From assembly GCF_038003085.1 (NCBI RefSeq), contig NZ_JBBOOM010000001.1, positions 3,162,001 to 3,226,000 of the forward strand: 64,000 nt of DNA, read 5' to 3'. The notes beneath the pieces were generated by a model. That model worked only from the letters and a program-made list of their open reading frames with translations. It searched no databases and was not told the origin of the DNA. The position numbers and the translations under genes are program-made. Source of the stretch: Psychrobacillus sp. FSL K6-2836. Its GTDB lineage: Bacteria; Bacillota; Bacilli; Bacillales_A; Planococcaceae. How positions within the stretch are numbered: the stretch's first letter is position 1; every line of letters begins with the position of its first letter. Positions 7,470-63,912 of the stretch are shown here, one piece after another.

Positions 7470-8094
7470 TGCGGTCGGGTGACTCTGTTAGCCCAAGAGA
7501 GGAGCGTATTCGCCCGCCCGAAAAGGCTATGCTCTCGGAGGACAATCGCCCGCTCGAGGCTGAGTGTTATGCGCCCGAGAGAGGAGCGTATCCGCTCGCG
7601 AGAAGAGGCTATGCGCTCGGAGGTAAATCGGCCCGCTCGAGGCTGAGCGTTATGCGCCCGAGAGAGGAGCGTATCTGCTCGCCCGAAGAGGTTATGCGCT
7701 CGGAGGACAATCTAACGCTCGAGGCTGAGCGTTATGCGCCCGAGAGAGAAGAGTATCCGCCCTCCCGAAGAGGCTATGCGCTCGGGGAACAATCGCCCGC
7801 TCGAGGCTGAGCGTTATGCGCCCGAGAGAGGAGCGTATCTGCTCGCCCGAAGAGGTTATGCGCTCGGAGGACAATCTAACGCTCGAGGCTGAGCGTTATG
7901 CGACCGAGAGAGGAGCGTATCCGCTCGCGAGAAGAGGCTATGCGCTCGGGTGACAATCGCTCGCTCGAGGCTGAGGGTTATGCGCCAGAGAGAGGAGCGT
8001 ATCCGCCCGCGAGAAGAGGCTATGCGCTCGGGTGACAATCGCCCGCTCGAGGCTGAGTGTTATGCGACCGAGAAAGGAGCGTATCCGCTCGCAA
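7470..8094. repeat. Array A: GC-rich 82-bp higher-order tandem repeat of four ~21-bp subunits
   Basis: The anchor CGCTCGAGG recurs at 7551, 7634, 7716, 7798, 7880, 7962 and 8044, giving spacings of 83 then 82 bp, plus a degenerate partial unit at the left end. Each 82-mer divides into subunits of 21+21+21+19 bp, each beginning with a CGCYCGRG-like head and mostly ending in TATG or TATC. Units 7634-7715 and 7798-7879 are identical while the unit between them differs. The array is far more GC-rich than its surroundings. It fills the space between the serA stop codon and the shared terminator at 8101. Long open frames run through it only because stop codons are rare here; 82 is not a multiple of 3, so no single frame is kept. 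Confidence 0.95.
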
Positions 8095-8100
8095 CCAACA

Positions 8101-8147
8101 AAAAAGCTGAATCTAGGACAAGTACTTGTCTTGGATTCAGCTTTTTA
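8101..8147. terminator. Bidirectional terminator for serA/array A and the HAD gene
   Basis: Near-perfect 23-bp inverted repeat (arms AAAAAGCTGAATC... and ...GGATTCAGCTTTTT, centred on AAGTACTT) bordered by A and T runs on both sides. Confidence 0.9.
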
Positions 8148-8148
8148 A

Positions 8149-8928
8149 TTATGCAAGCAGTGTCAATAGCTCTCTTAAGTTCTTAATTGTATATGTAGGC
8201 TTTACTTCTTCACTGACAGGTTTTTCTTCGCGGTTGATCCATACGGATTGCATGCCGACCCTAGAAGATCCTAAAACGTCGGTCATTAGATTATCGCCGA
8301 CCATCAATACGTCATCTGCCGTCAATCCGACAATTTCAAGAGCATGTTCAAAAATCGATGGATCGGGTTTCCCCTTACCAAAAGCGCCAGAAATAAGTAT
8401 ATGGTCAAAATATGCAGCTATCTCCGGTGTGATTTCCAATTTAATGTTTTGAAGACTCGGCGAGCCATTTGTCATTAATAATAACGTATACTTTCCTTTT
8501 AATTTATCTAATACTTCATAGGTTTCTTCATATATAAATGGGCTTTCTTTTCGCATTTTCGGGAAATGTTCTGCTAACTTTCTGCCTAATTCTTCATTAT
8601 CTATCCCTAGTTTCTCTAATCCCTTTGTCCATGCTAATCGTTGATATTCTGGTATGATGGCTTTCATTTTTTGAAAATCCTCTGAAGGATCGTCAAATGT
8701 CCCCCATAATCCTTCAAAGGGATTAATACCGATCATTTGGGTAAATGTGCGTGTTTCATATGTATCGTACAATGCACTTGCCTCTGCACGTACGGATTGT
8801 TCTAATGCAAGTGGATCTACATTAACCTGTGCCGCTGCGTATGCACATGTTTTGTCAAATGCAACGGACACACTTTTATTATCCCATAGTAAAGTATCAT
8901 CTAAGTCAAAGAAAATTGCTTTTTTCAT
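8149..8928 (-). CDS. HAD-superfamily phosphatase (YsaA-like)
   Basis: The 259-residue protein is a HAD hydrolase with motif I DLDDT (8-12), motif II in LLMTNGS, a conserved Lys in GKGKPDPSIF, and motif IV GDNLMTD, plus a helical cap between motifs I and II. Length and sequence agree with B. subtilis YsaA. Such enzymes remove phosphate from small metabolites. Its placement tail-to-tail with serA makes phosphoserine phosphatase, the last step of serine synthesis, an attractive guess that the sequence alone cannot prove. GGAGG lies nine bases before the ATG. It shares a terminator with serA. Confidence 0.85.
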   Translation of the reverse strand: MKKAIFFDLDDTLLWDNKSVSVAFDKTCAYAAAQVNVDPLALEQSVRAEASALYDTYETRTFTQMIGINPFEGLWGTFDDPSEDFQKMKAIIPEYQRLAWTKGLEKLGIDNEELGRKLAEHFPKMRKESPFIYEETYEVLDKLKGKYTLLLMTNGSPSLQNIKLEITPEIAAYFDHILISGAFGKGKPDPSIFEHALEIVGLTADDVLMVGDNLMTDVLGSSRVGMQSVWINREEKPVSEEVKPTYTIKNLRELLTLLA

Positions 8929-8988
8929 TCACCGAAACCTCCAGCATGTATTTACTTAATACTTTACCGTACTAAAGAGTTCGTGTCA

Positions 8989-9597
8989 CTAGAATGGTAC
9001 CATTTTTTCTAGAATTCCATCTTCCCGAATAATTCCTTCTATATCTTTGATAGTAATTGGAAAATAAGGGAAGCCGTATACGTATGGAGTCAATTCATAC
9101 ACTTGAAAGTAAATGACGAGTGAGTGATCGGCAATATAAAAATCTTGGTCACTGCGTATTTGTGTAAAATCCTCTAATAGTGGGACATCCCACTCTATTA
9201 TTTTCTTTTTAATCATTTCAGAAAGAACTTTAACATAATTGCTTTCCGGCTTAAACAGTTCACTTAGTACATATAGCTTACCTGTCTTCACATCGAAGGT
9301 GAGTGATTTTGTAATTGTAAGTCCGTGTGCACCTCCTGTAAAGGAATAGACAGTCAAACTTAAGCTTAGCACTCCACGCTCGTTTGTTTTGATTTCATAA
9401 GTACTGACCATTTCTACTAAATGCTCACTGTAAAATCCTTGTTCGATCAAAAGCGTGTTTAGTGCATGAATAATATCAGCATTTATCTTTTTTTCTACTG
9501 CGGGATGAGGTAAGTTAGTAACAATAGGATAATAAACATTAATGTTTGGTGAACTTTTCCTAATATATTTCGTTTCTATACGAACAGGTAGATCCAT
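8989..9597 (-). CDS. DUF3298/RsiV-like domain protein
   Basis: A 202-residue protein whose C-terminal part (VYSFTGGAHGLTITKSLTFDVKTGKLYVLSELF in shorter pieces GGAHG and FDVKTGK) is characteristic of the DUF3298 domain, preceded by a DUF4163-like region. In B. subtilis this module forms the lysozyme-binding part of the anti-sigma factor RsiV. Here there is no membrane segment or signal peptide, so it appears to be a stand-alone cytoplasmic relative of unknown role. I chose ATG 9597, nine bases after AAAGG, over an upstream TTG at 9606. It is divergent from the ATPase gene at 9652. Confidence 0.75.
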   Translation of the reverse strand: MDLPVRIETKYIRKSSPNINVYYPIVTNLPHPAVEKKINADIIHALNTLLIEQGFYSEHLVEMVSTYEIKTNERGVLSLSLTVYSFTGGAHGLTITKSLTFDVKTGKLYVLSELFKPESNYVKVLSEMIKKKIIEWDVPLLEDFTQIRSDQDFYIADHSLVIYFQVYELTPYVYGFPYFPITIKDIEGIIREDGILEKMVPF

Positions 9598-9651
9598 GGC
9601 AGACAACCTTTCTTAAGTAATAATAAATAGTATGAGTGGGAGAGGAATCAT

Positions 9652-10386
9652 ATGTTTTTAAATAGAGTGACCCTTTTCAAAGAGCCGCAAGTGGAAAGTC
9701 AATATCCCTTCACCATTCCAGCTATTAGCAACTTTAAAGAGCTTGAGTTAACCTCAACAGTAACTTTTTTTGTAGGCGAGAATGGTACAGGGAAATCCAC
9801 ACTTTTAGAAGGAATTGCAGATAAATGTGAATTTAATACAGCAGGTGGAAGCCGGAATAATTTATATGATGTAGACTCTGCAGAAAGTGCTCTAGGGAAA
9901 TATCTTAAACTTTCCTGGATGCCGAAAGTGACGAGTGGTTTCTTTTTACGAGCAGAATCCTATTATCAATTTGCATCTCATATCGATGAACAGGAAAGAG
10001 AAAATCCTGGAGAAGGTGTACTAGATAGCTACGGTGGAAAATCGCTTCATGAACAATCACACGGAGAGTCTTTTCTATCGCTATTTTTAAATCGTTTTAA
10101 TGGTCAAGCTATTTATCTTTTAGATGAGCCAGAAGCAGCGTTATCACCACAGAGACAATTGGCATTTTTACGTATCATGCATGATTTGATCAAGGAACAG
10201 AATTGCCAATTTATCATTGCGACACATTCTCCCATTATTTTAGGGTATCCAGAATCGACAATCCTAAGTTTTGATGATGGAGAGATTGAGGAAATCGATT
10301 ATGAAATGACTGGACATTATCAAATTACGAAATACTTTTTAGACCATCGGGAAAAATTTTTAGAAGAGCTATTTGAAGGTGAGTAA
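9652..10386 (+). CDS. AAA/ABC-type ATPase (SMC-like, no membrane partner)
   Basis: A 244-residue soluble ATPase. Walker A is GENGTGKST (42-50), a short signature-like HGESFLSLF is near residue 137, Walker B is IYLLDEPEAAL, and the switch histidine is in IIATHSP. This combination marks the overcome-type/AAA_21 family of ABC-like ATPases found in many Bacillales as stand-alone genes. The biological target is unknown. Its stop codon is directly followed by the start of the vanZ-like gene (TAAATG), so the two are cotranscribed. GGGAGAGG precedes the ATG. Confidence 0.8.
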   Translation: MFLNRVTLFKEPQVESQYPFTIPAISNFKELELTSTVTFFVGENGTGKSTLLEGIADKCEFNTAGGSRNNLYDVDSAESALGKYLKLSWMPKVTSGFFLRAESYYQFASHIDEQERENPGEGVLDSYGGKSLHEQSHGESFLSLFLNRFNGQAIYLLDEPEAALSPQRQLAFLRIMHDLIKEQNCQFIIATHSPIILGYPESTILSFDDGEIEEIDYEMTGHYQITKYFLDHREKFLEELFEGE

Positions 10387-10977
10387 ATGCATGTAATTAT
10401 AAATTATTTAGATGATATGTTATTTTTTATAGGGATAGCACTTCCATTGATTGTCATTTGGCGACTGTTTCGTTGGAAGAAGAGAGGATTTCAGCTAAAG
10501 GAGTTTTTACATGAGCTTGGCATTTTAGTTTTTTTCTCTGTGCTTGTTGGCCTGTTTTCTCAAACGATATTACCCAAAGCAGGTGAGGTGCCTGCTTATA
10601 CTACTGGCGTTAATTTAGAATTATTTCGTGTTGTAGAAGAAACATATAATGCCATTATATACTTAGGATTTTGGCAGCCATTTTATATTAACTTTCTTGG
10701 TAATATTATTCTTTTTATGCCTATTGGGTTTCTCTTACCTCTACTCTTTAAAAAAATGGAGTTTTTTATATTTCCTATATTAGTAGGTCTAGGCATATCC
10801 TTATTTATTGAAATTATGCAGCTTCCTCAAAGTAGGAGTAGTGATGTCGATGACTTATGGTTAAATACGCTTGGTGCTTTTCTTGGCTATCTATGCTATA
10901 TCTTTATTCGCAAAGCTTTCCCTTCGTTTACAGTTGCTTTCAAAAAAAGCGAGTTTATAAAACATAAGAATGGGTAA
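10387..10977 (+). CDS. VanZ family membrane protein
   Basis: A 196-residue integral membrane protein with about five hydrophobic segments and the VanZ-family core (NFLGNIILFMPIGFLLP, then IEIMQLPQSRSSDVDDLWLN split over the two conserved loops). VanZ proteins are linked to teicoplanin resistance in enterococci and to envelope processes elsewhere, but their reaction is unknown. The gene abuts the upstream ATPase gene, and its ribosome binding site (GAAGGTGAG) lies within the end of that gene. Confidence 0.85.
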   Translation: MHVIINYLDDMLFFIGIALPLIVIWRLFRWKKRGFQLKEFLHELGILVFFSVLVGLFSQTILPKAGEVPAYTTGVNLELFRVVEETYNAIIYLGFWQPFYINFLGNIILFMPIGFLLPLLFKKMEFFIFPILVGLGISLFIEIMQLPQSRSSDVDDLWLNTLGAFLGYLCYIFIRKAFPSFTVAFKKSEFIKHKNG

Positions 10978-11015
10978 ATATAGGATAGTAAGAATATTGC
11001 AAGGAGATAGTAAAC

Positions 11016-11174
11016 ATGATGAAAATTAAAGAATCACAAACTGAGCAAAAACGTGATGATATTATTGAAGAGTTTGTAAACAAAGGTGTATATAAAATTG
11101 ATGGAAGACAATTATATGAGTTAAACTTTTATGAATTAATGAAGGAATATACAACTGAAGATGAGAGTAGATAA
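11016..11174 (+). CDS. FbpA-family small protein
   Basis: A 52-residue protein with AAGGAG nine bases before ATG 11016. The core KGVYKIDGRQLYELNFYEL is the signature of the Fur-regulated basic protein A family (Pfam Fur_reg_FbpA). In B. subtilis FbpA works with the FsrA small RNA in the iron-sparing response. Unlike FbpA, this copy is not strongly basic, and I see no Fur box in front of it; the promoter may be shared with the ATPase and vanZ genes 40 bp upstream. The family assignment is good; a role in iron control is inference. Confidence 0.8.
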   Translation: MMKIKESQTEQKRDDIIEEFVNKGVYKIDGRQLYELNFYELMKEYTTEDESR

Positions 11175-11204
11175 GTGCCTTTCCTACAGGGCACTTTTTT
11201 TTGA
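11173..11204 (+). terminator. Intrinsic terminator after the FbpA-like gene
   Basis: Arms AAGTGCC and GGGCACTT with a short loop, followed by eight T residues. It begins within the stop codon. Confidence 0.85.
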
Positions 11205-11287
11205 ACAAACCTCTATTATCTATAAATATTAGTCGATATAAAAAATATGGTACACTTGACTCAAATACAGATAAGGTGGAAACAAAC

Positions 11288-12439
11288 TTGACTTTTATAA
11301 CTAATTTAAATGAAACATTACAAAAAAAATGGGAGGATGCAAATTTTGCATCTCCAATGCCGATACAATCCAAATTAATCCCACATATGTTGGATGGTTC
11401 TGACGTTGTGGCAGAATCTCCAACAGGAACTGGAAAAACACTTGCTTACGTGCTTCCAATCCTGCAGATGGTTGATCCAACCAAGAAACAAATACAGGCA
11501 ATGGTAATCATTCCTTCTCAGGAACTTGGTATGCAAATTGTGGAGGTATTCCGTGAATGGGTGAAAGATACAAACATCTCGGTTGCCCAATTAATCGGCG
11601 GAGCAAATATTAACAGACAGATTGATGTGCTTAAAAAGAAGCCGACAATTGTCGTTGGTACTCCAGGCAGATTACAAGAGCTAGTGAAAACTAAAAAACT
11701 AAAAATGCATGAGATAAACATCGTTGTTCTAGACGAAGGAGACCAACTCCTAAGCCGAGAGCATCGTACAACTGTGAAAAGTCTAGTCGACGCAACTGTG
11801 GAAAGTCAGCTGATTGTTACTTCTGCAACAATTACAGAAGAAATAGAATTAGTTGCGGAACGAATGATGAAGGATCCTGTGCGTATTCAAGTATCTGCAG
11901 AAGATGTCCCATCGCAAGGTGAAGTTGTACACAGTTTTGTGAAGACGGAACCTCGTGATAAAACCGAATTGTTACGTAGAATCTCTTATTTAAAAGGTAT
12001 GCGTGGTCTTGCGTTCGTAAATAGTCTAGATCAGCTCTTAATGAAGGATGCAAAACTTGCATATAGAGATGCACCAATCGTTTCTCTTCATTCGGAGATG
12101 AAAAAAGATGAACGGAAGAAAGCATTGGATGATTTTAAAAGCGGTAAGGTGAGCTTATTGATTGCTACGGATGTGGCAGCAAGAGGCTTAGATATTTCTG
12201 GGCTTACACATGTTATCCATGTAGATGTACCGCATTCGGTCGAACAGTACTTACATCGTTCGGGACGTACAGGACGTGCTGGAGCGGATGGAGAGGTAAT
12301 GACGTTGTTAACTTATTCTGATGAAAAGACGTATAAAAAGTGGACAAAAGAGCTTCCTAAAAAGCCAGTTCAAAAAGTATGGTATCGCGGCGAATTAATC
12401 GAGGGATCATCCAAAACTATCGCTCAAAAGGGGAAATAA
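11288..12439 (+). CDS. yfmL: DEAD-box RNA helicase YfmL
   Basis: The 383-residue ATP-dependent RNA helicase contains motif I AESPTGTGKT, motif Ib GTPGR, motif II VLDEGD (DEGD instead of DEAD, as B. subtilis YfmL has DETD), motif III SAT, and C-terminal motifs ATDVAARGLD and HRSGRTGRAG. Length and sequence match YfmL, which in B. subtilis assists 50S ribosome assembly. I place the start at TTG 11288, seven bases after AAGGTGG; the longer frame to 11201 runs back into the upstream terminator. There is no C-terminal rRNA-binding extension. Two bases separate it from the aminopeptidase gene, so they likely form an operon. Confidence 0.9.
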   Translation: MTFITNLNETLQKKWEDANFASPMPIQSKLIPHMLDGSDVVAESPTGTGKTLAYVLPILQMVDPTKKQIQAMVIIPSQELGMQIVEVFREWVKDTNISVAQLIGGANINRQIDVLKKKPTIVVGTPGRLQELVKTKKLKMHEINIVVLDEGDQLLSREHRTTVKSLVDATVESQLIVTSATITEEIELVAERMMKDPVRIQVSAEDVPSQGEVVHSFVKTEPRDKTELLRRISYLKGMRGLAFVNSLDQLLMKDAKLAYRDAPIVSLHSEMKKDERKKALDDFKSGKVSLLIATDVAARGLDISGLTHVIHVDVPHSVEQYLHRSGRTGRAGADGEVMTLLTYSDEKTYKKWTKELPKKPVQKVWYRGELIEGSSKTIAQKGK

Positions 12440-12441
12440 AG

Positions 12442-13671
12442 ATGGATTTTCAACAAAAGCTTGAAGAATATGCTGAATTAGTAGTAAAAGTGGGTCTGAA
12501 CATTCAGCCTAACCAACCACTTCTTATAAATACGACGACGGACACAATTGAATTTACACGTTTAATAGTGAAAAAGGCGTATGAAGCAGGTGCGAAACGA
12601 GTAGACGTAAATTATACAGATGAAGTAAGTGCACGTGCATTTTATGATTTTGCTCCAGATGATGCCTTCCATGAATTCCCGAAATGGGCTGCTATGCAGC
12701 GTGATGAGCTAATCGAAAATAAAGGCGCATTATTATGGATTGATGCAGATAATCCTGACCTATTAGAAGGCGTTTCGATTGATCGTATTTCAAGCTTTCA
12801 AAAGGCAAGTGGCAAAGCGTTAGAAAACTATCGTAAAGCAGTGATGAATGATGTTATTACATGGTCAATCGTTGCAATGCCTTCAGAAAAATGGGCTGCT
12901 AAGGTATTTCCAGACCTGAAGCCTGAGCAACAAATGCAGGCATTATGGGATTTAATATTCCAAGTTGTGCGTATAGGTGAAGGAACAGCTGTTCAAAAAT
13001 GGAAAGAACATATTGATAACCTCGAAAGTAGAGCAACACTATTAAATAATAAACGCTTCAAAAAGCTGCACTATAAATCAGAAGGAACAGATATTCAAGT
13101 CGAGCTTCCGAAAGAACATATTTGGATGTCAGGAGCAAGTAAAAATGGTCAAAACGTTCCGTTCATAGCGAATATGCCAACAGAGGAAGTATATACTGCA
13201 CCACTCAAAACAGGTGTAAATGGCTACGTAAAAAATACAAAGCCTTTTGTCTATCAGGGGAATATAATAGATGATTTTACTTTAACCTTTGAAAATGGCA
13301 AGATTATTTCCATTACAGCGTCAACCGGTGAGAAGCTATTGCAAGAGCTAATTGGAACAGATGAAGGAGCAAAATACTTAGGCGAGATTGCTTTGGTACC
13401 ACATGAATCACCTATTTCTGCTTCGAATGTATTATTCTTTAATACATTATTTGATGAAAATGCCTCCAACCATTTCGCTATTGGGGAAGCATATCCTACA
13501 TGTGTTGAGGGTGCTCGTGGTTTAAATAAAAGTGAACTAGAGGACATTGGTATTAACACATCAATAGTTCATGAAGACTTTATGATTGGTAGCGGAGACA
13601 TGGATATTATGGGTGAATTAGTAGATGGAACAATGGAGCCTATATTTACAAAAGGTACTTGGGCTTTTTAA
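12442..13671 (+). CDS. M29-family metalloaminopeptidase
   Basis: A 409-residue aminopeptidase of the thermophilic/AmpS (M29) family, which removes N-terminal residues from peptides with two metal ions. Conserved ligand regions are visible: MPTEEVYTAP, GEIALVPHESPIS, the FDENASNHFAIGEAY stretch, and HEDFMIGS near the C-terminus. The ATG at 12442 is two bases after the yfmL stop and follows AAAAGGGG. A second, clearly paralogous gene lies at 24315-25547. It is cytosolic and probably serves peptide recycling. Confidence 0.92.
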   Translation: MDFQQKLEEYAELVVKVGLNIQPNQPLLINTTTDTIEFTRLIVKKAYEAGAKRVDVNYTDEVSARAFYDFAPDDAFHEFPKWAAMQRDELIENKGALLWIDADNPDLLEGVSIDRISSFQKASGKALENYRKAVMNDVITWSIVAMPSEKWAAKVFPDLKPEQQMQALWDLIFQVVRIGEGTAVQKWKEHIDNLESRATLLNNKRFKKLHYKSEGTDIQVELPKEHIWMSGASKNGQNVPFIANMPTEEVYTAPLKTGVNGYVKNTKPFVYQGNIIDDFTLTFENGKIISITASTGEKLLQELIGTDEGAKYLGEIALVPHESPISASNVLFFNTLFDENASNHFAIGEAYPTCVEGARGLNKSELEDIGINTSIVHEDFMIGSGDMDIMGELVDGTMEPIFTKGTWAF

Positions 13672-13684
13672 GGAGTTGATAGGC

Positions 13685-14554: not shown

Positions 14555-14576
14555 CTTAGGCACTACTAATGTATAG

Positions 14577-14680
14577 TTGCGCATAAGCATTTGGAAGTTG
14601 CTCAAACGAGGTAGATGTTGCGGATAATCAGACAAATGTTGCGCATACATGTCGAAACATTGCGCAAAGTATAATGCACA
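14577..14680. repeat. Array C: five ~21-bp units with TTGC(G)CA heads
   Basis: Units start at 14577, 14598, 14618, 14639 and 14660 (spacing 21, 20, 21, 21). Heads read TTGCGCAT, TTGCTCAA, TTGCGGAT, TTGCGCAT and TTGCGCAA; the tails of about 13 bp show no similarity. The array sits between the SGNH gene's stop codon and its terminator, at a convergent gene junction. Confidence 0.85.
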
Positions 14681-16405: not shown

Positions 16406-16427
16406 GAATTCGAACTAAATAATTCAA

Positions 16428-16556
16428 ACCACAAGGGGCGCCGGTGATTCGGCTGAGATAGTACCCTTCGAACCTGTAAGTTAATGCTTGCGTAGGGATG
16501 TGGATGGAAACTGACAATCGCGCGATGTCTGGGTCTATCCCAGGGGTCGTTTTTTT
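16428..16556 (+). promoter_or_regulatory. TPP riboswitch (THI element) with terminator
   Basis: The aptamer at about 16428-16503 contains the invariant blocks GGCTGAGATA, ACCCTTCGAACCTG and GCGTAGGGA, closed by the ACCACA / TGTGG outer stem. The expression platform is the hairpin at 16523-16549 (CGATGTCTGGG / CCCAGGGGTCG) followed by seven T residues. Thiamine pyrophosphate binding should favour termination and shut off thiT when thiamine is plentiful. Confidence 0.95.
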
Positions 16557-22332: not shown

Positions 22333-22437
22333 ACTTGCACTCATCGGGATTTTACTTGCTCTACTCAAAAAGTAACTTGCTGATATCTATCCTTTACTTG
22401 CGTTTAAAGACAATTCACTTGCTATGTAGAAATTTCA
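22333..22437. repeat. Array D: five exact 21-bp units with ACTTGC heads
   Basis: ACTTGC recurs at 22333, 22354, 22375, 22396 and 22417, every spacing exactly 21 bp, while the 15-bp tails show no similarity. The rest of the 22106-22581 gap shows no gene or recognised RNA. On the strand of the flanking genes the head reads GCAAGT, the same head and sense as in array E downstream of psuG. Confidence 0.88.
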
Positions 22438-22581
22438 TCCATAAATAAGTGCGATTCTCTACCAACTCGACTAGAGCTTTGGATATAATTTATATTACTG
22501 TATAGAGATTCGTTTCTTTCTAAATAAGTGTCATACATCATGGGTACTTATCGTACAATTTAATCTTATTAATGTATAAAG

Positions 22582-22654: not shown

Positions 22655-22825
22655 AAACCCCACTAATTGTAGTTTCACTTTATCCCGCATTAACGGGCAG
22701 TAAGACTTTCGCTTTAAGGCTTACCGAAGTAACGAAGAGTCAGTGGGAGCTAACTGCCCGTAAAAGCCCTATTGGTTCAACTAACAATCAGGGGGGGAAG
22801 AATCTCCCCAGATTGTAGTTTCACT
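22655..22825. repeat. Dispersed intergenic repeat abutting the mreBH stop
   Basis: Two direct copies of TTGTAGTTTCACTTTATC (about 22666 and 22817) flank an inner inverted repeat ACGGGCAGT / ACTGCCCGT. This composition is typical of an intergenic repeat family common in Planococcaceae; a related but shorter copy follows motB. It ends within the last bases of mreBH. Confidence 0.7.
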
Positions 22826-23833
22826 TTATCTTGCTAGTTTTTGTTTTCTGTCTGATATAAAAAAGGATTTTCCTGTACCAATAGCCACAGACTGTAATGG
22901 CTCTGGTGCAAGATGAACCGGTACTTCAATGACCTGAGTCAACCACTCGGAAATGTCTTTTAGTAATGCCCCACCACCGGTTAATATTACTCCGTGGTCG
23001 ACTATATCTCCCGCAAGTTCAGGTGGGCAGGTTTCTAAAGTAGCACGAATTGCTTCTAAAATTGTTTCCAACGATTCTGTTAAAACACCTTGAATTTGAG
23101 TAGATGATAGGTGAATAGTCTTTGGTAATCCACTCACAACATCTCTTCCTGTAACTTGCATTTGTTCTACTGCGTGAGGCAATAAAGCATGTCCAATAGT
23201 CATCTTTATAATCTCAGCTGTAGGTTCGCCAATGATGACATTATACTCTTTTCGAACAAAGTGAATAATTGCTTCATCCATACGATCTCCAGCGGCTTTT
23301 ACTGTATTAGATGCTACAACTCCACCGAAAGAAATTATACCTACTTCTGTAGTACCTCCACCAATGTCCACAATCATACTAGCTACTGGCTCGTCGACTG
23401 GTAGACCGGCACCGATTGCAGCAGCAACGGGCTCTTCCATTAACTGAACGTCCTTTGCGCCACTTTGTCTTACCGCATCTTGTATAGCTCTTCGTTCAAC
23501 AGAAGTTGCACCAGATGGAGTACATACAACTACAGTCGGTTTTCTCAATGAAGTACCAAGTTTTTTTCCTGCTTTTTGCATGATTAGTTTCAATAATTGT
23601 GTTGTAATATCAAAATCAGCAATTACCCCATCCTTCAAAGGACGTATTACCTCAATTGAAGTGGGTGTTTTACCAATCATTTTTTTTGCTTCTTCGCCGA
23701 AAGCAACGATTTCACGAGTTTTAGTATTAACTGCTACTACTGTAGGTTCATCTATTAATAAGCCTTTGCTTTTTGTATAAACTAACGTATTTGCTGTACC
23801 TAAATCTATTCCAATATGTGAGTTTGAAAACAT
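22826..23833 (-). CDS. mreBH: MreB-like actin homologue MreBH
   Basis: A 335-residue bacterial actin guiding lateral-wall synthesis. Phosphate loops [10 protein letters not shown] and [11 protein letters not shown], the adenosine motif LTGGGALL and the CTPSG segment are all present. Sequence and length agree best with MreBH among the three Bacillus MreB paralogues, and it is not in an mreCD operon. I chose ATG 23833, seven bases after AGGAGG, rather than a start eight codons upstream. A perfect 7-1-7 palindrome lies just upstream (23856-23870). Confidence 0.88.
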
Positions 23834-29608: not shown

Positions 29609-29689
29609 TATTATTTGGAGAAATTCTATTTGAAAAGTACGCTTGCCGATTGCTACAAGAATACGTGGAAATGGTTAATTTACCGTTCT

Positions 29690-29794
29690 GCAAGTAATCC
29701 TCAGTCGAGGGCAAGTAAGTGAAGAGTATGAGCAAGTAACTAGCAGAGTAAAGCGAGTAAAATCCTGGTAAGAACAAGTACACGAATATGCGTT
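29690..29794. repeat. Array E: five exact 21-bp units with GCAAGTAA heads
   Basis: Heads at 29690, 29711, 29732, 29753 and 29774 (GCAAGT, GCAAGT, GCAAGT, GCGAGT, ACAAGT, the first four followed by AA), each exactly 21 bp apart; tails unrelated. The head is the reverse complement of that in array D. It lies between the psuG terminator and the convergent yfkK terminator. The rest of the 29609-29911 gap shows no gene. Confidence 0.85.
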
Positions 29795-36800: not shown

Positions 36801-36947
36801 GATGTAAACGCTCCTTTTAAATGTATGTAGATAACAAACATTACAAGTATACTATTTTATTAGGATGAAAAAAAGAGTCGCTGGGGGAATAAATGCTGGA
36901 GAATACGCCTACGCAGTGGTTATGGCTCGGGGAAAAAATCATTCATC

Positions 36948-38219
36948 GACCCACAAGTAAGAGCTATTCGCCCGAGCGCGACCGTCATCCGCTCGGGAAT
37001 CGATCGAACGCCCGAGAAATTGATGTATGCGCCCGAGAACAAGGGCTATGCGCTCGAGAATGGCAGTCATCCGCCCGGAATCAATCGAACGCTCGAGAAG
37101 TAGATGTATCCGCCCGAGAGCAGGGACTATGCGCTCGGGAATGGCAGTCATCCGCCCGGAAATCGATCGAACGCCCGAGAAATTGATGTATGCGCCCGAG
37201 AGCAAGGGCTATGCGCTCGAGAATGGCAGTCATCCGCCCGGAAATCAATCAAACGCTCGAGAAATTGATGTATCCGCCCGGGAGCAGGGGCTATGCGCTC
37301 GGGACTGGCAGTCATCCGCCCGGAAATCAATCGAACGCCAGAGAAGTAGATGTATCCGCCCGAGAGCAAGGGCTATGCGCTCGAGAATGGCATTCATCTG
37401 CCCGGAAATCGATCGAACGCCCGAGAAGTAGATGTATCCGCCCGGGAGCAAGAGTTATGCGCTCGGGAATGGCAGTCATCCGCTCGGAAATCGATCGAAC
37501 GCCCGAGAAGTAGATGTATCCGCCCGGGAGCAGAAGTTATGCGCTCGGGACTGGCAGTCATCCGCCTGGATATCAATCGAACGCCCGAGAAATTGATATA
37601 TCCGCCCAGGAGCAAGGGCTATGCGCTCGAGAATGGCAGTCATCCGCCCGGAAATAATCGAACGCCCGAGAAGTTGATGTATCCGCCCGAGAGCAGGAGT
37701 TATGCGCCCGAGCGCGACCGTCATCCGCTCGGAAATCAATCGAACGCCCGAGAAATTGATGTATCCGCCCGCGGGCAAGGGCTATGCGCTCGAGAATGGC
37801 AGTCATCCGCTCGGAAATCAATCGAACGCCAGAGAAGTAGATGTATCCGCCCGGTAGCAAGAGCTATGCGCTCGAGAATGGCATTCATCTGCCCGGAATC
37901 AATCGAACGCCCGAGAAGTAGATGTATCCGCCCGGTAGCAAGAGCTATGCGCTCGGGACTGGCAGTCATCCGCCCGAGAATGGCAGTCATCCGCTCGAAA
38001 ATCGATCGAACGCTCGAGAAGTAGATGTATCCGCCCGGTAGCAGGAGTTATGCGCCCGAGCGCGACCGTCATCCGCCCGAGAATCAATCGAACGCCCGAG
38101 AAGTAGATGTATCCGCCCGAGAGCAAGGGCTATGCGGTCGAGAATGGCAGTCATCCGCTCGGAAATCAATCGAACGCTCGGGAACAACAGTCATCCGCTC
38201 GAGAACGTAGCCATCCGCC
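36948..38219. repeat. Array B: ~14 copies of an 82-bp higher-order repeat of 21+21+21+19 bp subunits
   Basis: The anchor GATGTAT (once GATATAT) recurs at 37022, 37103, 37185, 37267, 37349, 37431, 37513, 37595, 37676, 37758, 37840, 37921, 38024 and 38106. Spacings are 81 or 82 bp except one of 103, which is exactly one extra 21-bp subunit. Subunits begin CGCYCGRG; for example 37090-37110, 37111-37131, 37132-37152 (21 bp each) and 37153-37171 (19 bp). Three copies (near 36969, 37705 and 38050) share a variant third subunit with CGAGCGCGACCGTC. GC content is far above the surroundings. The open frames that cross it have no ribosome binding sites and shift with every unit. Confidence 0.95.
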
Positions 38220-57798: not shown

Positions 57799-57805
57799 TC
57801 ATTTA

Positions 57806-57846: not shown

Positions 57847-57865
57847 TAACCTAATGAGATAACAG

Positions 57866-57918: not shown

Positions 57919-57975
57919 TAAATTAATAGTAAATTAGTTAGAAAATTTTCAATTTTTGTGAAAAGAGGGAGCATC

Positions 57976-58995
57976 ATGGGAGAACGACAAACAATTTTGG
58001 AAGTGAAAGATCTTCAAACGTCCTTTTTCACAGATGATGGTGTTATTCCATCCGTAGACCATATTGATTTTCATGTTAGAGAAGGGGAAATATTAGGTAT
58101 TGTTGGGGAATCTGGATGTGGAAAAAGTGTAACATCTCTTTCTATTATGGGACTAGTTCCTAGTCCACCTGGGAAAATTACTAGTGGTCAAATAATGTTC
58201 GAAGGAAAAGACTTAACGAAGTTTTCGGAGAAAGAAATGCGTAAAGTACGTGGTAACGATGTTGCAATGATTTTCCAAGAGCCGATGACATCTTTAAATC
58301 CTTTATTTACAATTGGAAATCAATTGCTTGAGGCAATTACTTTACATAAGAAAGATTGGAACAAAAAGAAAGCATATGCAAGAGCGGTGGAAATGTTAAA
58401 ACTAGTTGGACTACCTAGAGCAGAAGAGCTTATGAAAGACTATCCACACCAGCTCTCCGGAGGAATGAGACAACGTGTAATGATTGCAATGGCCTTAGTA
58501 TGTGATCCTAAGCTTTTAATAGCTGATGAGCCAACTACAGCCTTAGATGTAACAATTCAAGCTCAAATATTAAAACTAATGCGCGAGTTAAATGAACGAC
58601 TAAACACAGCAGTAATTTTAATAACACATGATTTAGGGGTAGTAGCGGAAACTTGTGAGAGAGTAGTCGTTATGTATGCGGGAAAAGTAGTGGAAGAGGG
58701 TACTGTGGATACGATTTTTAATAACCCACAACATCCTTATACAAAAGGCTTAATCGCTTCTGTTCCAGATATGCGTTATAAAAAACAACGACTCTATTCT
58801 ATTCCGGGAAGTGTTCCAAAACCTGGATCTATTAAACAGGGCTGCAGATTTGCAGCTCGCTGTGAATTTGTATTTGGAAGATGTACCGAAGAAAATCCTC
58901 CATTATACGAAACATCGGAAGGTCATAAAACAAGATGCTTCTTATACGATGAGAAGGAGGTTTTGGCAGATGACAGAGCCGTTGTTAAAAGTTGA
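57976..58995 (+). CDS. Peptide ABC transporter ATPase, DppD/OppD type
   Basis: A 339-residue ATPase energising oligo- or dipeptide import. Walker [10 protein letters not shown]-loop [10 protein letters not shown], signature LSGGMRQR, Walker [13 protein letters not shown] and H-loop THDLGV are visible. The C-terminal extension has the cysteine-rich region ([23 protein letters not shown]) that is an iron-sulfur-like feature of Opp/Dpp ATPases. Start ATG 57976 follows AAGAGGGAG. It overlaps the second ATPase gene by 26 bases. It is the first gene of a five-gene operon ATPase-ATPase-binding protein-permease-permease. Confidence 0.92.
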
Positions 58996-59953
58996 AGGTT
59001 TAAAAAAGTATTTTCCAATACGTACTGGACTGTTAGGAAAGCACACAGGCAATGTCAAGGCAGTTGATGGTATTTCTTTTTTTGTTAATGAAGGAGAAAC
59101 ACTTGGCATTGTTGGCGAATCTGGATGCGGTAAATCTACTACTGGCAGAATGCTTATGAGATTACTAGAGCCTACTGAAGGTAAAGTGACATTTAACGGA
59201 AAAGAGCTAACGAATATTTCCAATGACGAGATGAGAAAAGCAAGACGTGAAATACAAATGGTATTTCAAGATCCATACGCATCCTTGAATCCTCGGCATA
59301 CCGTAGAAAAGATTTTATTGGAGCCATTAATTGTTCATAATATTGGAGACCCAAAAAGTCGGAAAAAGAAAGTACATGAATTTCTAGAAATTGTTGGTTT
59401 AAGTAGCTATCATGCAAAACGTTATCCACATCAATTTAGTGGAGGACAGCGGCAACGTATAGGAATTGCAAGAGCATTGATGACTAATCCGAAGTTAATA
59501 ATAGCGGATGAACCAGTATCTGCTCTCGACGTATCTATACAGGCACAAGTTTTGAATCTCATGCAAGATTTACAGAAAGAGCTAAAGTTAACCTATATTT
59601 TTATCGCCCATGATTTAGGAGTAGTTCGCCATATTAGTGACCGTGTAGGGGTAATGTACTTAGGTAGAATGGTAGAGCTTGCTACAAGTGAATCTATGTA
59701 TGCTGAACCTCTACATCCTTATACAAAAGCTTTACTTTCAGCGGTACCAGTACCAGATCCGGAATTTAAACGCGAACAAATTATTTTAGAAGGAGACATT
59801 CCAAGTCCCTCTAACCCACCTACAGGGTGCACCTTCCATACAAGATGTCCTTTTAAAATGGATATTTGCGTGAAGGAAATTCCACAATTACAAGAAGCTA
59901 AAGCTGGTCATTTTGTTGCATGCCATTTATACAATGAGCAAATGCAACATTGA
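58970..59953 (+). CDS. Peptide ABC transporter ATPase, DppF/OppF type
   Basis: A 327-residue second ATPase, which forms a heterodimer with the upstream one. It shows the F-subunit features: KYFPIRTG at the start, Walker [47 protein letters not shown], and the C-terminal cysteines (GCTFHTRCPF, DICVKEIP). AAGGAGG precedes ATG 58970, inside the previous gene; the much longer open frame upstream is a shadow of that gene. Confidence 0.92.
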   Translation: MTEPLLKVEGLKKYFPIRTGLLGKHTGNVKAVDGISFFVNEGETLGIVGESGCGKSTTGRMLMRLLEPTEGKVTFNGKELTNISNDEMRKARREIQMVFQDPYASLNPRHTVEKILLEPLIVHNIGDPKSRKKKVHEFLEIVGLSSYHAKRYPHQFSGGQRQRIGIARALMTNPKLIIADEPVSALDVSIQAQVLNLMQDLQKELKLTYIFIAHDLGVVRHISDRVGVMYLGRMVELATSESMYAEPLHPYTKALLSAVPVPDPEFKREQIILEGDIPSPSNPPTGCTFHTRCPFKMDICVKEIPQLQEAKAGHFVACHLYNEQMQH

Positions 59954-59978
59954 TAATAAATTTTATGGAGGGGTCCAA

Positions 59979-61607
59979 ATGAGAAAATCGAAAATATGGT
60001 CATTTATGCTGTTGATGTTCGTTGCACTTACTGTAGTACTTGCTGCGTGTTCATCTGGCGATTCATCAGACGGCGATACAAAAAAAGATAATGACAAGGG
60101 GACGACAGATACTTCTGAAGAGAAAGTATTAGTCTTTGGTCGTGGAGGTGACTCGGTTACACTAGATCCAGCAGGTGCTACGGATGGTGAATCGTTTAAA
60201 GTTACACAAAACGTGTTAGAAACACTATTGAACTTTGGTGAGCAAAATACGGAGATCAATGAAGGACTAGCTACGAAATGGGAGCCATCTGAGGATGGAC
60301 TTACTTATACATTCACACTTCGTGAAGGAGTAAAATTCCATGATGGAACAGACTTCAATGCAGAGGCAGTAGTTAAAAACTTTGAACGTTGGGCAAATGG
60401 TTCCGAAGATCTATTCCCGTATTATAAGTCTATGTTCGGGGGATTTGCTGGTGACGAAAGTCGCGTAATTGATTCAGTTACTGCTGAAGGAGATTACACA
60501 GTAATATTTAAGCTTACTCGTCCTCAAGCACCTTTCTTAAAAAATATTGCAATGAGTCCTTTCGCAATTGCAAGTCCGACTGCATTTGAAGCAGCTGGAG
60601 ACAAATTTGGTGATAGCCCAGTTGGTACTGGACCATTTAAATTTGTAGAATGGAAACGTAATGATTCTATTACTATTGAAAAGAATGATGAGTATTGGAA
60701 TTCAGAAGAGCCTAAATTGGATAAAGTTGTTTTCCGTGCAATTCCAGACAATTCTGCACGTTTGAACGATCTTCTAACTGGAGCAATAGATTTAGCTGAT
60801 GGGGTAAATCCATCAGATGGTACAACAGTTGAAGCAGAAGCAGCGCTACAATTATTCGAACGACCATCTATGAATGTTGGATATCTTGGTTTAACAAGTA
60901 CTCGTCCACCATTTGATAACCAAAAAGTTCGTCAAGCTGTAAACTATGCAATTGATAAACAAGCGATTGTCGATGCTTTCTTCGAAGGTCGTGCAGAAGT
61001 AGCGAAAAATCCAATGCCATCGACTATAAGCGGTTACAATGATGATATTCCTGGATATGAATACGATCCAGAAAAAGCGAAGCAATTATTAGCAGAAGCT
61101 GGTTTTGCTGACGGATTTGAAATGGAACTATGGGCAATGCCAGTTCCACGTCCATATATGCCAGATGGTGCAAAAGTTGCAGAAGCTATTCAAAAGAACT
61201 TAGCTGATGTTGGTATTACTGCTAATATCGTATCTTATGAATGGGCTACTTATTTAGAAAAAGCTGAAAACGGAGAAGCAGACGCATTCTTGTTAGGCTG
61301 GACAGGTGATAATGGAGATGCAGATAACTTCATCTATGTGTTACTTGACGAAGATAATATAGGAAGTAACAACTATAGCTACTACAGTAATGATGAGACA
61401 CATAAATTATTAATCGAAGCACAAACAGAAGTAGACGAAGAGAAACGTAATGAACTATATAAACAAGCGCAAGAAATTATCTTTGAGGATGCTCCGTGGG
61501 TTCCACTTGCACACTCAACACCTTTACTAGCAGGTGATGCAGAAATTATTAATTTCAAACCACATCCGACTGGTTCTGATAGATTAAACAAGGTCGACTT
61601 TAAGTAA
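59979..61607 (+). CDS. Peptide-binding lipoprotein, family 5
   Basis: A 542-residue substrate-binding protein. The signal peptide ends in lipobox LAAC (Cys ~24), then a Ser/Asp/Lys-rich linker, then the family 5 fold (ETLLNFGEQ, SEDGLTYTFTLREGVKFHDG in part, SPVGTGPFKF, and DAPWVPLAHS near the end). It would deliver di- or oligopeptides; some family members bind other ligands such as glutathione or nickel. GGAGGGG precedes ATG 59979. A terminator-like hairpin and a dispersed repeat separate it from the permease genes. Confidence 0.92.
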   Translation: MRKSKIWSFMLLMFVALTVVLAACSSGDSSDGDTKKDNDKGTTDTSEEKVLVFGRGGDSVTLDPAGATDGESFKVTQNVLETLLNFGEQNTEINEGLATKWEPSEDGLTYTFTLREGVKFHDGTDFNAEAVVKNFERWANGSEDLFPYYKSMFGGFAGDESRVIDSVTAEGDYTVIFKLTRPQAPFLKNIAMSPFAIASPTAFEAAGDKFGDSPVGTGPFKFVEWKRNDSITIEKNDEYWNSEEPKLDKVVFRAIPDNSARLNDLLTGAIDLADGVNPSDGTTVEAEAALQLFERPSMNVGYLGLTSTRPPFDNQKVRQAVNYAIDKQAIVDAFFEGRAEVAKNPMPSTISGYNDDIPGYEYDPEKAKQLLAEAGFADGFEMELWAMPVPRPYMPDGAKVAEAIQKNLADVGITANIVSYEWATYLEKAENGEADAFLLGWTGDNGDADNFIYVLLDEDNIGSNNYSYYSNDETHKLLIEAQTEVDEEKRNELYKQAQEIIFEDAPWVPLAHSTPLLAGDAEIINFKPHPTGSDRLNKVDFK

Positions 61608-61614
61608 TATACTT

Positions 61615-61650
61615 AAGGGGAGAGGTCTCCGTGATTTCTCCCCTTTCTTT
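61615..61650 (+). terminator. Partial terminator inside the transporter operon
   Basis: Arms AAGGGGAGA / TCTCCCCTT, with TTCTTTATTC following. It may reduce transcription of the permeases relative to the abundant binding protein. Confidence 0.7.
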
Positions 61651-61681
61651 ATTCAATTAGAAATTTGTTTTTATTCAGCAT

Positions 61682-61802
61682 CTGTCTAGCTCCAACGCCT
61701 AGCCCCTCGAGTCGCTTCAGGATTTTAGTAAAGGCAAAGGACGCCTTTACGTCAATTCCTTCCAGCGCTTTTCGAGGCTTTCATAGGCGTTTGTGCTTTT
61801 CT
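61682..61802. repeat. Dispersed repeat inside the operon
   Basis: TGTCTAGCTCCAACGCCTAG at the left and AGGCGTTTGTGCTTTTC at the right are the usual ends of a short repeat scattered through Bacillales (CTAGCTCCAGCGCCTAG type). The inside has complementary CCTCGAGTCGC/ GCTTTTCGAGG and AAAGGCAAAGGACG/CGCCTTTACG tracts. It separates the binding-protein and permease genes. Confidence 0.75.
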
Positions 61803-61828
61803 TATTTTAAATTAGAGAGGTGAAGAAA

Positions 61829-62833
61829 ATGCTTCACTATATCGGTAAACGATTATTACAATTGATACCCGTATTACTTGGTATGACATTCATTGTTTTC
61901 ATGATCATACGAGCAATTCCTGGTAATCCTGCTCAAGTAATTCTAGGACAATTAGCATCTAAAGAAGCGATAGAAGCATTGGAGATTAAGCTAGGCTTAA
62001 ACCAGCCTTGGTATACACAATACTTTGACTATTTAGTTGGTCTCTTAAAAGGCGATTTAGGAGAATCCATGCGAACGGTTCAACCGGTTGCTAAAGAGAT
62101 TTGGCCATACTTGGCTGCAACAATCGAGCTTGCTTTTTTTGCTATTATTATTGCGGTTATTATTGGAGTGAATGCAGGTATTATATCTGCTTGGTTCCAG
62201 AATTCTTGGTTTGATTATATGGCAATGGTTTTAGCTTTAATAGGTGTATCAATGCCAATCTTTTGGCTAGGTTTGATGGAACAATGGATTTTTGGTGTTG
62301 AATTGCAATGGCTTCCAACGACTGGTCGAGAAGAAGTACGGGATCCTGTTAATTCTATTACCAGCTTGTATATTATAGATACAATTATACAGGGTAGATT
62401 CGATCAATTAGGTACCGTTTTGAAGCATTTAATATTGCCTGGTATTGCATTGGCTACAATTCCAATGGCGATTATTGCACGTATGACTAGATCTAGTATG
62501 CTAGAGGTAATGCGAGCGGATTATGTTCGTACTGCTAGAGCTAAAGGTCAGAAAATGTTTTTTGTTGTTTACAAACATTCTTTAAAAAATGCAATTATTC
62601 CTGTATTAACTGTAATTGGACTTCAAACAGGGCTATTACTTGGAGGCGCTATTTTAACAGAGACTATCTTTGGCTGGCCGGGAATCGGACGGTATATTTA
62701 CGAAGCTATTTCATTCCGTGATTATCCTGTTATTCAGTCAGGTATACTTGTTGTCGCTTTTATATTTATTATGATTAATTTATTCGTAGATATTTTGTAT
62801 GGGTTAGTAGATCCTAGGATCAAATATGACTAA
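61829..62833 (+). CDS. Peptide ABC transporter permease, DppB type
   Basis: A 334-residue integral membrane protein with six helices. The N-terminal GKRLLQLIPVLLGMTFIVF and the binding-protein-dependent transport motif (EAA loop) ADYVRTARAKGQKMFFVVYKHSLKNA (quoted in part: RTARAKGQ) are typical of DppB/GsiC. I use ATG 61829 after GAGAGGTG rather than GTG 61820, which is part of that site. It pairs with the DppC-type permease gene 14 bases downstream. Confidence 0.92.
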   Translation: MLHYIGKRLLQLIPVLLGMTFIVFMIIRAIPGNPAQVILGQLASKEAIEALEIKLGLNQPWYTQYFDYLVGLLKGDLGESMRTVQPVAKEIWPYLAATIELAFFAIIIAVIIGVNAGIISAWFQNSWFDYMAMVLALIGVSMPIFWLGLMEQWIFGVELQWLPTTGREEVRDPVNSITSLYIIDTIIQGRFDQLGTVLKHLILPGIALATIPMAIIARMTRSSMLEVMRADYVRTARAKGQKMFFVVYKHSLKNAIIPVLTVIGLQTGLLLGGAILTETIFGWPGIGRYIYEAISFRDYPVIQSGILVVAFIFIMINLFVDILYGLVDPRIKYD

Positions 62834-62847
62834 AAGGAGGAATAGAT

Positions 62848-63747
62848 ATGTCCGAAATGGTTCCGAATTCGACAAATGATCAAGTAATGGCAACTAAAGA
62901 AACGTCGACCGGTCCTTGGCGAGATGCATGGCGTAGCTTTCGTAAAAATAAAGGAGCGCTTGTAGGAGCAGGGATTGTCTTATTCTTCGTATTTTTAGCT
63001 GGTTTTGGTTTTCTGCTTGCTCCACAAGGTATTAATGATCAGCTTTTAACAGACCGCTTACAACCACCGTCTAGTCAATACTGGTTCGGTACGGATGATT
63101 TTGGGCGGGATATATATTCTCGAATTATTCATGGAGCTAGAATTTCTCTAATGGTAGGATTTTTCTCTGTTATTGGTTCTGTAGTAGTCGGTAGTATTTT
63201 AGGTATTATTGCAGGTTACTATGGGAAATGGATAGACATGATTATTTCAAGAATTTTCGATATCATGTTAGCTTTTCCAAGTATACTATTGGCAATAGCA
63301 GTTGTATCTGTTTTAGGACCATCTTTGCAAAATGCGTTAATCGCTATTGCGATTATTAATATCCCTAACTTTGGTCGACTAATACGTTCAAAAGTTCTAA
63401 GTATTAAAGAAGAGGAGTACATAACATCTGCTAAAGCTATTGGGATGAGAGATATTCGAATTTTATTTTCTCATATTCTACCTAATTCAATGGCACCGGT
63501 TATTGTTGCAGGTACACTGGCAATTGCATCGGCCATTATCGAAGCAGCCGCATTAGGGTTCTTAGGACTGGGTGCTCAGGCACCGGCACCTGAATGGGGA
63601 AAGATGTTGGCGGATGCTCGTATGTATTTAAGGAATGCTCCGTGGACGATGATATTCCCAGGACTCGCAATAATGTTGACAGTAGTAGGATTTAACTTGA
63701 TGGGCGATGGACTCCGAGATGCACTAGATCCTAAGATGAAAAATTAA
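62848..63747 (+). CDS. Peptide ABC transporter permease, DppC type
   Basis: A 299-residue permease with six membrane helices and a cytoplasmic N-terminus of ~40 residues. Hallmarks are FGTDDFGRDIYSRIIHGAR (in part), the EAA loop SAKAIGMRDIRILF, and the C-terminal GDGLRDALDPK. AAAAGGAGG precedes the ATG. It is the last gene of the operon; a terminator and array F follow. Confidence 0.92.
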   Translation: MSEMVPNSTNDQVMATKETSTGPWRDAWRSFRKNKGALVGAGIVLFFVFLAGFGFLLAPQGINDQLLTDRLQPPSSQYWFGTDDFGRDIYSRIIHGARISLMVGFFSVIGSVVVGSILGIIAGYYGKWIDMIISRIFDIMLAFPSILLAIAVVSVLGPSLQNALIAIAIINIPNFGRLIRSKVLSIKEEEYITSAKAIGMRDIRILFSHILPNSMAPVIVAGTLAIASAIIEAAALGFLGLGAQAPAPEWGKMLADARMYLRNAPWTMIFPGLAIMLTVVGFNLMGDGLRDALDPKMKN

Positions 63748-63752
63748 CAAAT

Positions 63753-63800
63753 ATGCCATCTAGCAAGTTTATTGCTGGGTGGCATGTTTTGCTCTTTTTA
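63753..63800 (+). terminator. Terminator of the peptide transporter operon
   Basis: Arms ATGCCATCTAGCA / TGCTGGGTGGCAT (with G-U pairs) and a T-rich tail. Confidence 0.85.
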
Positions 63801-63828
63801 AAAGTTGATCGACCCATTACAAGAGTAA

Positions 63829-63912
63829 TTCGGATGAATACCAGCAATAATAGGTCGAATAGAAAGAATAATAGGTTGAATACTACTAACAATCGGTCGA
63901 ATACTTTAACAT
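63829..63912. repeat. Array F: four exact 21-bp units with GGTYGAATA heads
   Basis: Units start at 63829, 63850, 63871 and 63892, spacing exactly 21 bp. Heads read TTCGGATGAATA, ATAGGTCGAATA, ATAGGTTGAATA and ATCGGTCGAATA; the remaining nine bases differ. It lies between two terminators that face each other. Confidence 0.82.

What the first reader, a model, noticed from the sequence alone, without database searches (positions are those of the whole stretch)
7470..63912. Six intergenic arrays share a 21-bp phase but use locus-specific heads
Arrays at 7470, 14577, 22333, 29690, 36948 and 63829 are all made of ~21-bp units with a 6-9 bp conserved head followed by a tail; within the four short arrays the tails show no similarity. 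Heads differ by locus: CGCYCGRG (two arrays), TTGCGCA, ACTTGC, GCAAGT, GGTYGAATA. Direct copying alone does not explain conserved heads with randomised tails; it suggests selection or active maintenance of a short motif at two-helical-turn spacing, so that every head faces the same side of the DNA. Four of six lie between convergent genes, recalling REP/BIME elements, which bind gyrase or nucleoid proteins. I know of no described repeat family with this combination. It is neither CRISPR nor a coding repeat.
Basis: partly seen in the sequence, partly recalled or inferred. Interest (0 to 1): 0.9.

Follow-up and report, generated by a model that had tools for sequence, protein, structure and literature searches.

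The report
Evenly spaced short DNA motif arrays
The gaps between this bacterium's genes hold an estimated hundred small DNA arrays in which a short motif recurs every 21 letters (two turns of the helix) and stays constant while the letters between drift, which points to an unknown protein docking along one face of the DNA; repeats of this constant size were already reported in other bacteria, but I did not see this element-like build described.

Summary
The six arrays are real. The 21-bp conserved-head pattern is genome-wide: in 720 kb not chosen for it, 17 clusters at period 21, none inside a long ORF, against 3 at fifteen other periods; about 107 per genome by extrapolation. Heads are not locus-specific: ACTTGC and GCAAGT are one family read on opposite strands, at 19 own loci by a strict pattern. 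In seven orthologous arrays heads differ at 4 of 294 sites, tails at 87 of 416; with five dropped pairings added, 13 of 448 against 170 of 598. That family is a discrete element of about 133 bp: leader (TGG-N9-CC) plus most often six heads (30 of 58), with sharp ends. An unrelated family in another genus has its own leader (16 of 20 arrays). Other genera of the family show the same pitch with other heads. Constant-size 20-21-nt, variable-sequence repeats with a conserved short signal are already published for Bacillus (PMC8161180), so the kind is known. New here, as far as read: selection on heads in place, leader plus modal head number, spread as an element. Best explanation: DNA sites for a protein that oligomerises on one face. 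Partner unknown.

The parts
7470..8092 (+). Family B array (head TATNCGCYCGAG), 82-bp higher-order repeat, four heads per repeat
14577..14666 (+). Family E array (head GTTGCGCA), five heads, steps 21,20,21,21; a degenerate head one step upstream at 14556
   Evidence: read by eye in relatives: GTTGC heads kept in L073, partial in L071, decayed in L072 and L074, not seen in L075-L079
22331..22422 (-). Family A element, five heads (GCAAGTA on the minus strand, ACTTGC on plus)
22423..22441 (-). Leader of the minus-strand family A element, degenerate (TGG present, CC absent)
29672..29689 (+). Leader of a family A element (TGG...CC...)
29690..29781 (+). Family A element, five heads GCAAGTAA
36948..38205 (+). 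Family B array, 82-bp higher-order repeat, 54 CGCYCG matches
63832..63903 (+). Array with head GGTYGAATA, four heads

Best explanation
The arrays are DNA-level docking sites. Each head is a recognition site (about 8 bp, up to about 13 bp with weak flanks) for one subunit of a sequence-specific DNA-binding protein. The 21-bp pitch puts neighbouring subunits on the same face two turns apart, so that they touch and form an oligomer along or around the DNA. In family A a leader begins the complex and most often six heads complete it, a unit of about 133 bp; other families are run on as long tandem arrays.
For: Period 21 stands out in genome stretches. Seven orthologous equal-length arrays: heads 4 of 294, tails 87 of 416 mismatches; 38 of 42 heads perfect where 35% would be expected at the tail rate after allowing for the at-most-one-mismatch detection rule. 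With five dropped pairings added: 13 of 448 against 170 of 598. Of 375 successive exact GCAAGTA heads within 70 bp, 296 lie at 21, 17 at 20, 1 at 19, none from 22 to 37 (most of these loci were fetched because they hold 21-bp triplets). Family A ends are sharp: information is near zero before -19 and soon after the sixth head (31 elements). The consensus leader is symmetric (GGW9CC) with little covariation beyond column independence, as a protein site would be. In co-directional gaps 18 arrays run with the genes and 12 against. RNA folding z-scores +0.83 and -0.14 for the two strands (20 of 34 elements). Same pitch with other heads in other genera.
Against: No partner protein was found; none was searched for beyond 20 flanking genes. 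Arrays are dispensable at a given locus: at 14577, 22333 and 29690 related species have lost, decayed or never had them. Heads do change in some orthologues (window against L072 3 of 35, L097 against L104 4 of 35). Heads differ between families, so one protein with one specificity cannot read all. Contig-start stretches of other Psychrobacillus genomes gave 5 arrays at period 21 against 8 at fifteen other periods in 358 kb (the two at period 20 are probably mixed 20/21 arrays). Per-head step is about 20.2-20.8 in long own arrays but up to 21.06 in long arrays elsewhere, so the helical-face argument is consistent but not proven.
Confidence: 0.58

Rival explanations
1. Mobile or selfish repeat: family A is a non-autonomous element copied to new intergenic sites, and the heads are binding sites of the enzyme that moves it; there is no benefit to the host.
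For: Some arrays at different loci and in different species share unit order with diverged tails (by eye), sharp ends, triplets in only 4 of 19 Psychrobacillus genomes; whole elements are tandemly multiplied (L092, L110, L117).
Against: No target-site duplication signal in 31 elements; ends are not inverted repeats (by eye); heads stay conserved in orthologous copies that have not moved while tails drift.
Confidence: 0.2
2. RNA-level function: arrays are transcribed as 3' UTR or small RNA, with heads as RNA-protein or antisense motifs.
For: 7470 and 14577 lie between a stop codon and a terminator-like hairpin (by eye); 52-nt repeats of the related published class are transcribed in B. coagulans (PMC8161180 section 4; PMC8625621 passages).
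Against: 18 with and 12 against the neighbouring genes; no excess fold in family A; a fixed 21-bp pitch has no obvious meaning for a flexible RNA; no Rfam match in the arrays of the window.
Confidence: 0.14
3. Neutral minisatellites made by slippage, with no function.
For: Long arrays are clearly copied higher-order repeats.
Against: Slippage does not conserve 7-8 columns and free the other 13, nor choose 21 bp in many genera with unrelated heads, nor a leader and a modal head number.
Confidence: 0.03
4. CRISPR-like array that takes up random spacers between short repeats.
For: Conserved heads, dissimilar tails and a leader look alike.
Against: Unit order is stable between species and tails diverge gradually in most orthologous pairs; the head number has a clear mode.
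Confidence: 0.01

Closest known systems
Constant-size 20-21-nt tandem repeats of Bacillus and other bacteria (Subirana and Messeguer 2021, PMC8161180: outline, opening part, sections 3.3 and 4, tables and references read; their 2020 paper known only by citation)
   Same: Repeat of 20-21 nt with no sequence conservation between families, several families per species, mostly non-coding, species-specific, a short signal conserved in all repeats (TCGCGG in B. weihaiensis); the authors note two helix turns and suggest a protein polymerising on DNA.
   Different: They catalogue tandem repeats of at least four copies; in the parts read I saw no leader, fixed head number, dispersal as a discrete element or head-versus-tail rate test. 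Psychrobacillus, Lysinibacillus, Sporosarcina and Planococc- do not occur in the main text.
REP/BIME elements (recalled)
   Same: Short intergenic repeats, many per genome.
   Different: REP are palindromic; family A is a direct repeat at 21 bp without RNA fold excess, and the clusters are not clearly enriched between convergent genes.
Iterons and plasmid centromeres bound by ParR-like proteins (recalled)
   Same: Direct repeats of about 20 bp read by an oligomerising protein on one face.
   Different: An estimated hundred chromosomal copies and many head families; no initiator or partition gene among the 20 flanking genes checked.
Bacillus cereus bcr elements (recalled; used only as a search term)
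   Same: Interspersed intergenic repeats of 100-200 bp in a Bacillus relative.
   Different: bcr1 is, from memory, a palindrome-rich element; family A has phased direct heads.

Membership tests
Subirana-Messeguer 20-21-nt constant-size repeats | Repeat size 20-21 nt predominates | tested here: met
Subirana-Messeguer 20-21-nt constant-size repeats | Variable sequence, several families in one species | tested here: met
   at least eight head families in the genome sample
[quoted passage not shown]
   17 of 17 unbiased clusters not inside an ORF over 600 nt; 52 of 53 family A clusters not spanned by an ORF of 600 nt or more (one spanned by 663 nt, eight others by 240-363 nt)
Subirana-Messeguer 20-21-nt constant-size repeats | Short signal conserved in all repeats | tested here: met
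Subirana-Messeguer 20-21-nt constant-size repeats | Families specific to a species or close relatives | tested here: met
   GCAAGTA triplets in 4 of 19 genus genomes and 1 of 101 class genomes, the own one; CGCYCG core is wider, 46 of 261
REP/BIME | Imperfect palindrome or hairpin unit | tested here: not met
   family A only (20 of 34 elements); only the leader consensus is symmetric
CRISPR | Gain of new spacers between orthologous arrays | tested here: not met
   family A only
Transposon or MITE | Target-site duplication | tested here: not met
   31 family A elements, lengths 3-10
Protein-docking array | A protein that binds the heads | not testable with these tools
   needs pull-down or ChIP

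The most novel reading that the evidence does not exclude
Each family A element would be a nucleosome-sized (about 133 bp) docking unit of the bacterial chromosome.
Probability: 0.2. Interest if true: 0.85.

Novelty: new variant of a known kind. Interest (0 to 1): 0.55.

Why it matters
The authors of the published class call it enigmatic and only guess at a function. Here the heads are shown to be held in place by selection, the element has a defined start and a modal number of sites, and it occurs in many copies in a genus with named type strains. That turns an open question into a bench test with a roughly 130-bp probe and obvious mutants (scrambled heads, half-turn spacers). If a protein is found, it would be a chromosome-binding factor with fixed geometry and rapidly changing specificity.

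Tried and rejected
Leader hairpin: the GG...CC dyad looked compensatory by eye, but pair counts hardly exceeded column independence in 31 elements, so it is treated as a symmetric site, not an RNA stem. Leader as a promoter -10 element: the conserved columns do not fit (by eye). A 10.25-bp helical repeat: own long arrays give about 20.2-20.8 bp per head (head number per period by rounding; blocks with periods 21, 42 and 63 also occur), but long arrays in other genera run to 21.06, so only 'two turns' is claimed. Convergent-gene enrichment: not clear. Target-site duplication: none. Local partner gene: 20 genes flanking 13 family A loci are unrelated to one another; 19 of 20 had a Pfam match, many of them core functions such as enolase, SHMT, CTP synthase and RecO. 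A PDB sequence search with an array-spanning ORF gave nothing. Papers: the listings held nothing on point by title and abstract; one search listed PMC8161180; the listings (20 of 37 shown; 1) showed no further paper on 20-21-nt repeats. PMC6749651 was only searched for terms, without matches. The 2020 paper is not held and was not read.
Full report
Observation. Reading the six places confirms arrays with conserved heads at 21-bp steps. An exact-column scan of periods 8-63 had hits only at period 21. The tolerant array finder used later gives 9 arrays in the window and none in 40 dinucleotide shuffles. ACTTGC at 22333 and GCAAGT at 29690 are the same head on opposite strands.

Genome-wide. The window lies in a 4.54-Mb genome. 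Its nearest named relatives found are Psychrobacillus species (MreBH 97% identical to P. psychrotolerans and P. psychrodurans). NCBI places the genus in Bacillaceae; the genome tool's 'family' (f1, 261 genomes, 19 genera) I take, from memory, to be the GTDB family Planococcaceae. In the window plus 20 stretches (464 kb, four stretches chosen for CGCYCG hits) a 4-unit, 7-column scan gave 36 clusters at period 21, and among the other 51 periods of 9-60 only 12 (1), 15 (1) and 42 (2). In 864 kb the tolerant finder gave 62 arrays at 21; among fifteen other periods tested it gave 15 (2), 18 (2), 19 (1) and 42 (8; twice 21), else 0. In the 36 stretches (720 kb) not chosen for arrays: 17 clusters in 11 stretches, 17 of 17 not inside an ORF over 600 nt, against 3 clusters over fifteen other periods; about 107 per genome by extrapolation.

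Head families. The own genome has GCAAGTAA (A), TATNCGCYCGAG (B), CACATAA (C), TATACGAGAG (D), GTTGCGCA (E), AATCGCAAG (F), GGTYGAATA (G), CCCATAA (H) and others. Three GCAAGTA at 21 bp: 51 hits at 19 own loci, control 0. In the genus 4 of 19 genomes have it, control 0 in all; in a class sample 1 of 101, the own one. Three CGCYCG at 21 bp: 46 of 261 genomes, 7 of 19 genera. The reversed control pattern hit 14 of 261 genomes, at most 5 hits each, in a few of them as many as the real pattern, so some of the 46 may be chance; the strong ones are not (up to 279 hits). The sequence around CGCYCG differs by genus.

Anatomy of family A. 98 arrays (tandem copies counted) were found in the loci held: 62 span exactly six head positions, none seven. 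With a laxer head rule and near-copies dropped, 58 remain: 3 heads 3, 4 heads 8, 5 heads 11, 6 heads 30, 7 heads 3, 8 heads 3; 34 of 58 carry the strict leader TGG-N8-10-CC just upstream, against 45 of 1,666 upstream background stretches. Information content is near zero from -80 to -20, rises at -19 (TGG) and ends just after the sixth head (31 elements). The element is therefore about 133 bp: 19 + 5 x 21 + 9. Tails at the same position in different elements are slightly more alike (0.38) than at different positions (0.33; 34 elements), and some elements share tail order across loci and species (by eye), so the element appears to spread by copying. Of 53 clusters, 52 are not spanned by an ORF of 600 nt or more; one is spanned by a 663-nt ORF and eight others by ORFs of 240-363 nt.

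Selection. Seven orthologous, equal-length arrays anchored on both flanks, taking the most alike copy where several exist: heads 4 of 294 mismatches, tails 87 of 416 (Fisher 2e-17). Detection needed heads with at most one mismatch; among the 42 heads 38 are perfect, against 35% expected at the tail rate (p 1e-13). Pairs of unequal head number, and a second copy in L087, were left out; with these five pairings added the count is 13 of 448 against 170 of 598. The least favourable are L097 with L104 (heads 4 of 35, tails 17 of 52) and window with L072 at 29690 (3 of 35, 35 of 52; by order of units). Loci of the other genomes, except L071 and L072, were fetched because they hold arrays, so lost arrays are not in these counts. 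Spacing: of 375 successive exact heads within 70 bp, 296 at 21, 17 at 20, 1 at 19, none at 22-37 (most of these loci were fetched for 21-bp triplets).

Turnover, read by eye in syntenic loci chosen by MreBH. At 29690, L072 has the same heads with other tails, L071 a partial array, L073 one head, and none is seen in L074-L079. At 22333, L072 has two heads and none is seen in L071 and L073-L076. At 14577, L073 keeps four heads, L071 a partial array, L072 and L074 look decayed, and none is seen in L075-L079. So single arrays are dispensable.

Long arrays. Own long arrays of families B, C, D and E have higher-order periods of 82, 101-103, 122-124 and multiples, i.e. about 20.2-20.8 bp per head; blocks with periods 21, 42 and 63 also occur. 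In another Psychrobacillus (G010) two arrays average 20.5 and 20.56. In arrays of 8 heads or more in other genera the means run from 20.5 to 21.06, with one array of 44 heads at 21.00. All fit two turns of B-DNA.

Spread in the family. Twenty contig-start stretches of other genera of the family (370,573 bases): 30 arrays at period 21 in 9 of 20 stretches (18 of them one long locus, L171; two others in long ORFs) against 1 at fifteen other periods. Two cautions: three of the 20 genomes (G087, G182, G240) were already known to hold CGCYCG arrays, and contig starts may be enriched for repeats because assemblies break there (L171, L176 and L182 have arrays in the first 300 bases), so density is not to be read from this. 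Twenty contig-start stretches of other Bacilli families (388,332 bases), taken the same way: 3 at 21, two of these in ORFs, against 3 at other periods; none is evident there at this depth, although the literature reports 21-nt repeats in some Bacillus species. Twenty stretches of 18 other Psychrobacillus genomes (358,203 bases, mostly contig starts): 5 at 21 against 8 at other periods, two of these 8 at period 20 and probably the same mixed 20/21 arrays: density varies much between species.

A second family with the same build. In two genomes of genus g11 (and one array of a g8 genome) the head TTCGCCCG was studied at loci chosen by CGCYCG hits: of 20 arrays, 9 have five heads, 7 four, 2 seven, 1 six and 1 three. 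A leader TAGTTCNAAAGTAATGA lies directly upstream, with at most 4 mismatches in 16, in 16 of 20 (the g8 array and three others fail), against 0 of 1,260 upstream background positions.

DNA or RNA. In co-directional gaps 18 family A arrays run with the genes and 12 against. RNA folding energy is no better than dinucleotide shuffles on either strand (20 of 34 elements). No Rfam family matches the arrays of the window. This favours a DNA-level role.

Prior work. PMC8161180 (outline, opening part, sections 3.3 and 4, tables and references read; its other results sections and supplements not read) describes constant-size 20-21-nt and 52-nt tandem repeats with variable sequence, species-specific families and a short conserved signal, notes that this length is two helix turns, and suggests a protein polymerising on DNA or small RNAs. 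The 2020 paper is known only through its citation. PMC8625621 was seen in passages. The finding therefore belongs to a described kind. In the parts read I saw no leader, no fixed number of sites, no dispersal as an element and no rate test; other papers may hold them.

Verdict. A real, selected, genome-wide class of phased direct-repeat elements; a new variant of a published but unexplained kind, with the reader protein still unknown.

Noticed in passing
own genome C1: 14 of 19 family A loci point along replication (origin near 2.2 Mb by GC skew and gene strand), and only 1 of 19 lies between 1.55 and 3.15 Mb around it (bounds chosen after looking).
   Followed up: partly
window 5565-5797, 16424-16515, 804-891: Rfam matches: a T-box upstream of phosphoglycerate dehydrogenase, a TPP riboswitch, and a BsrC small RNA.
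   Followed up: no
L071 and L073, locus orthologous to window 29690: A GC-rich interspersed repeat (around GGCGACTCC) sits in the same gap in two relatives (by eye).
   Followed up: no
window 22727-22830: A repeat-like stretch (CACTTTATCCCGCATTAACGGGCAGTAAGAC...) between the array and MreBH (by eye).
   Followed up: no
window 36893-38024: The long array carries open frames up to 224 aa that gene callers may report as proteins.
   Followed up: partly
L092, L107, L110, L113, L117: Whole family A elements, leader included, are tandemly multiplied with periods from about 167 to 226 bp.
   Followed up: partly
L135 and L164 (G010): Long arrays with head TTGGGGA and mixed 20/21-bp steps in another Psychrobacillus.
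   Followed up: partly
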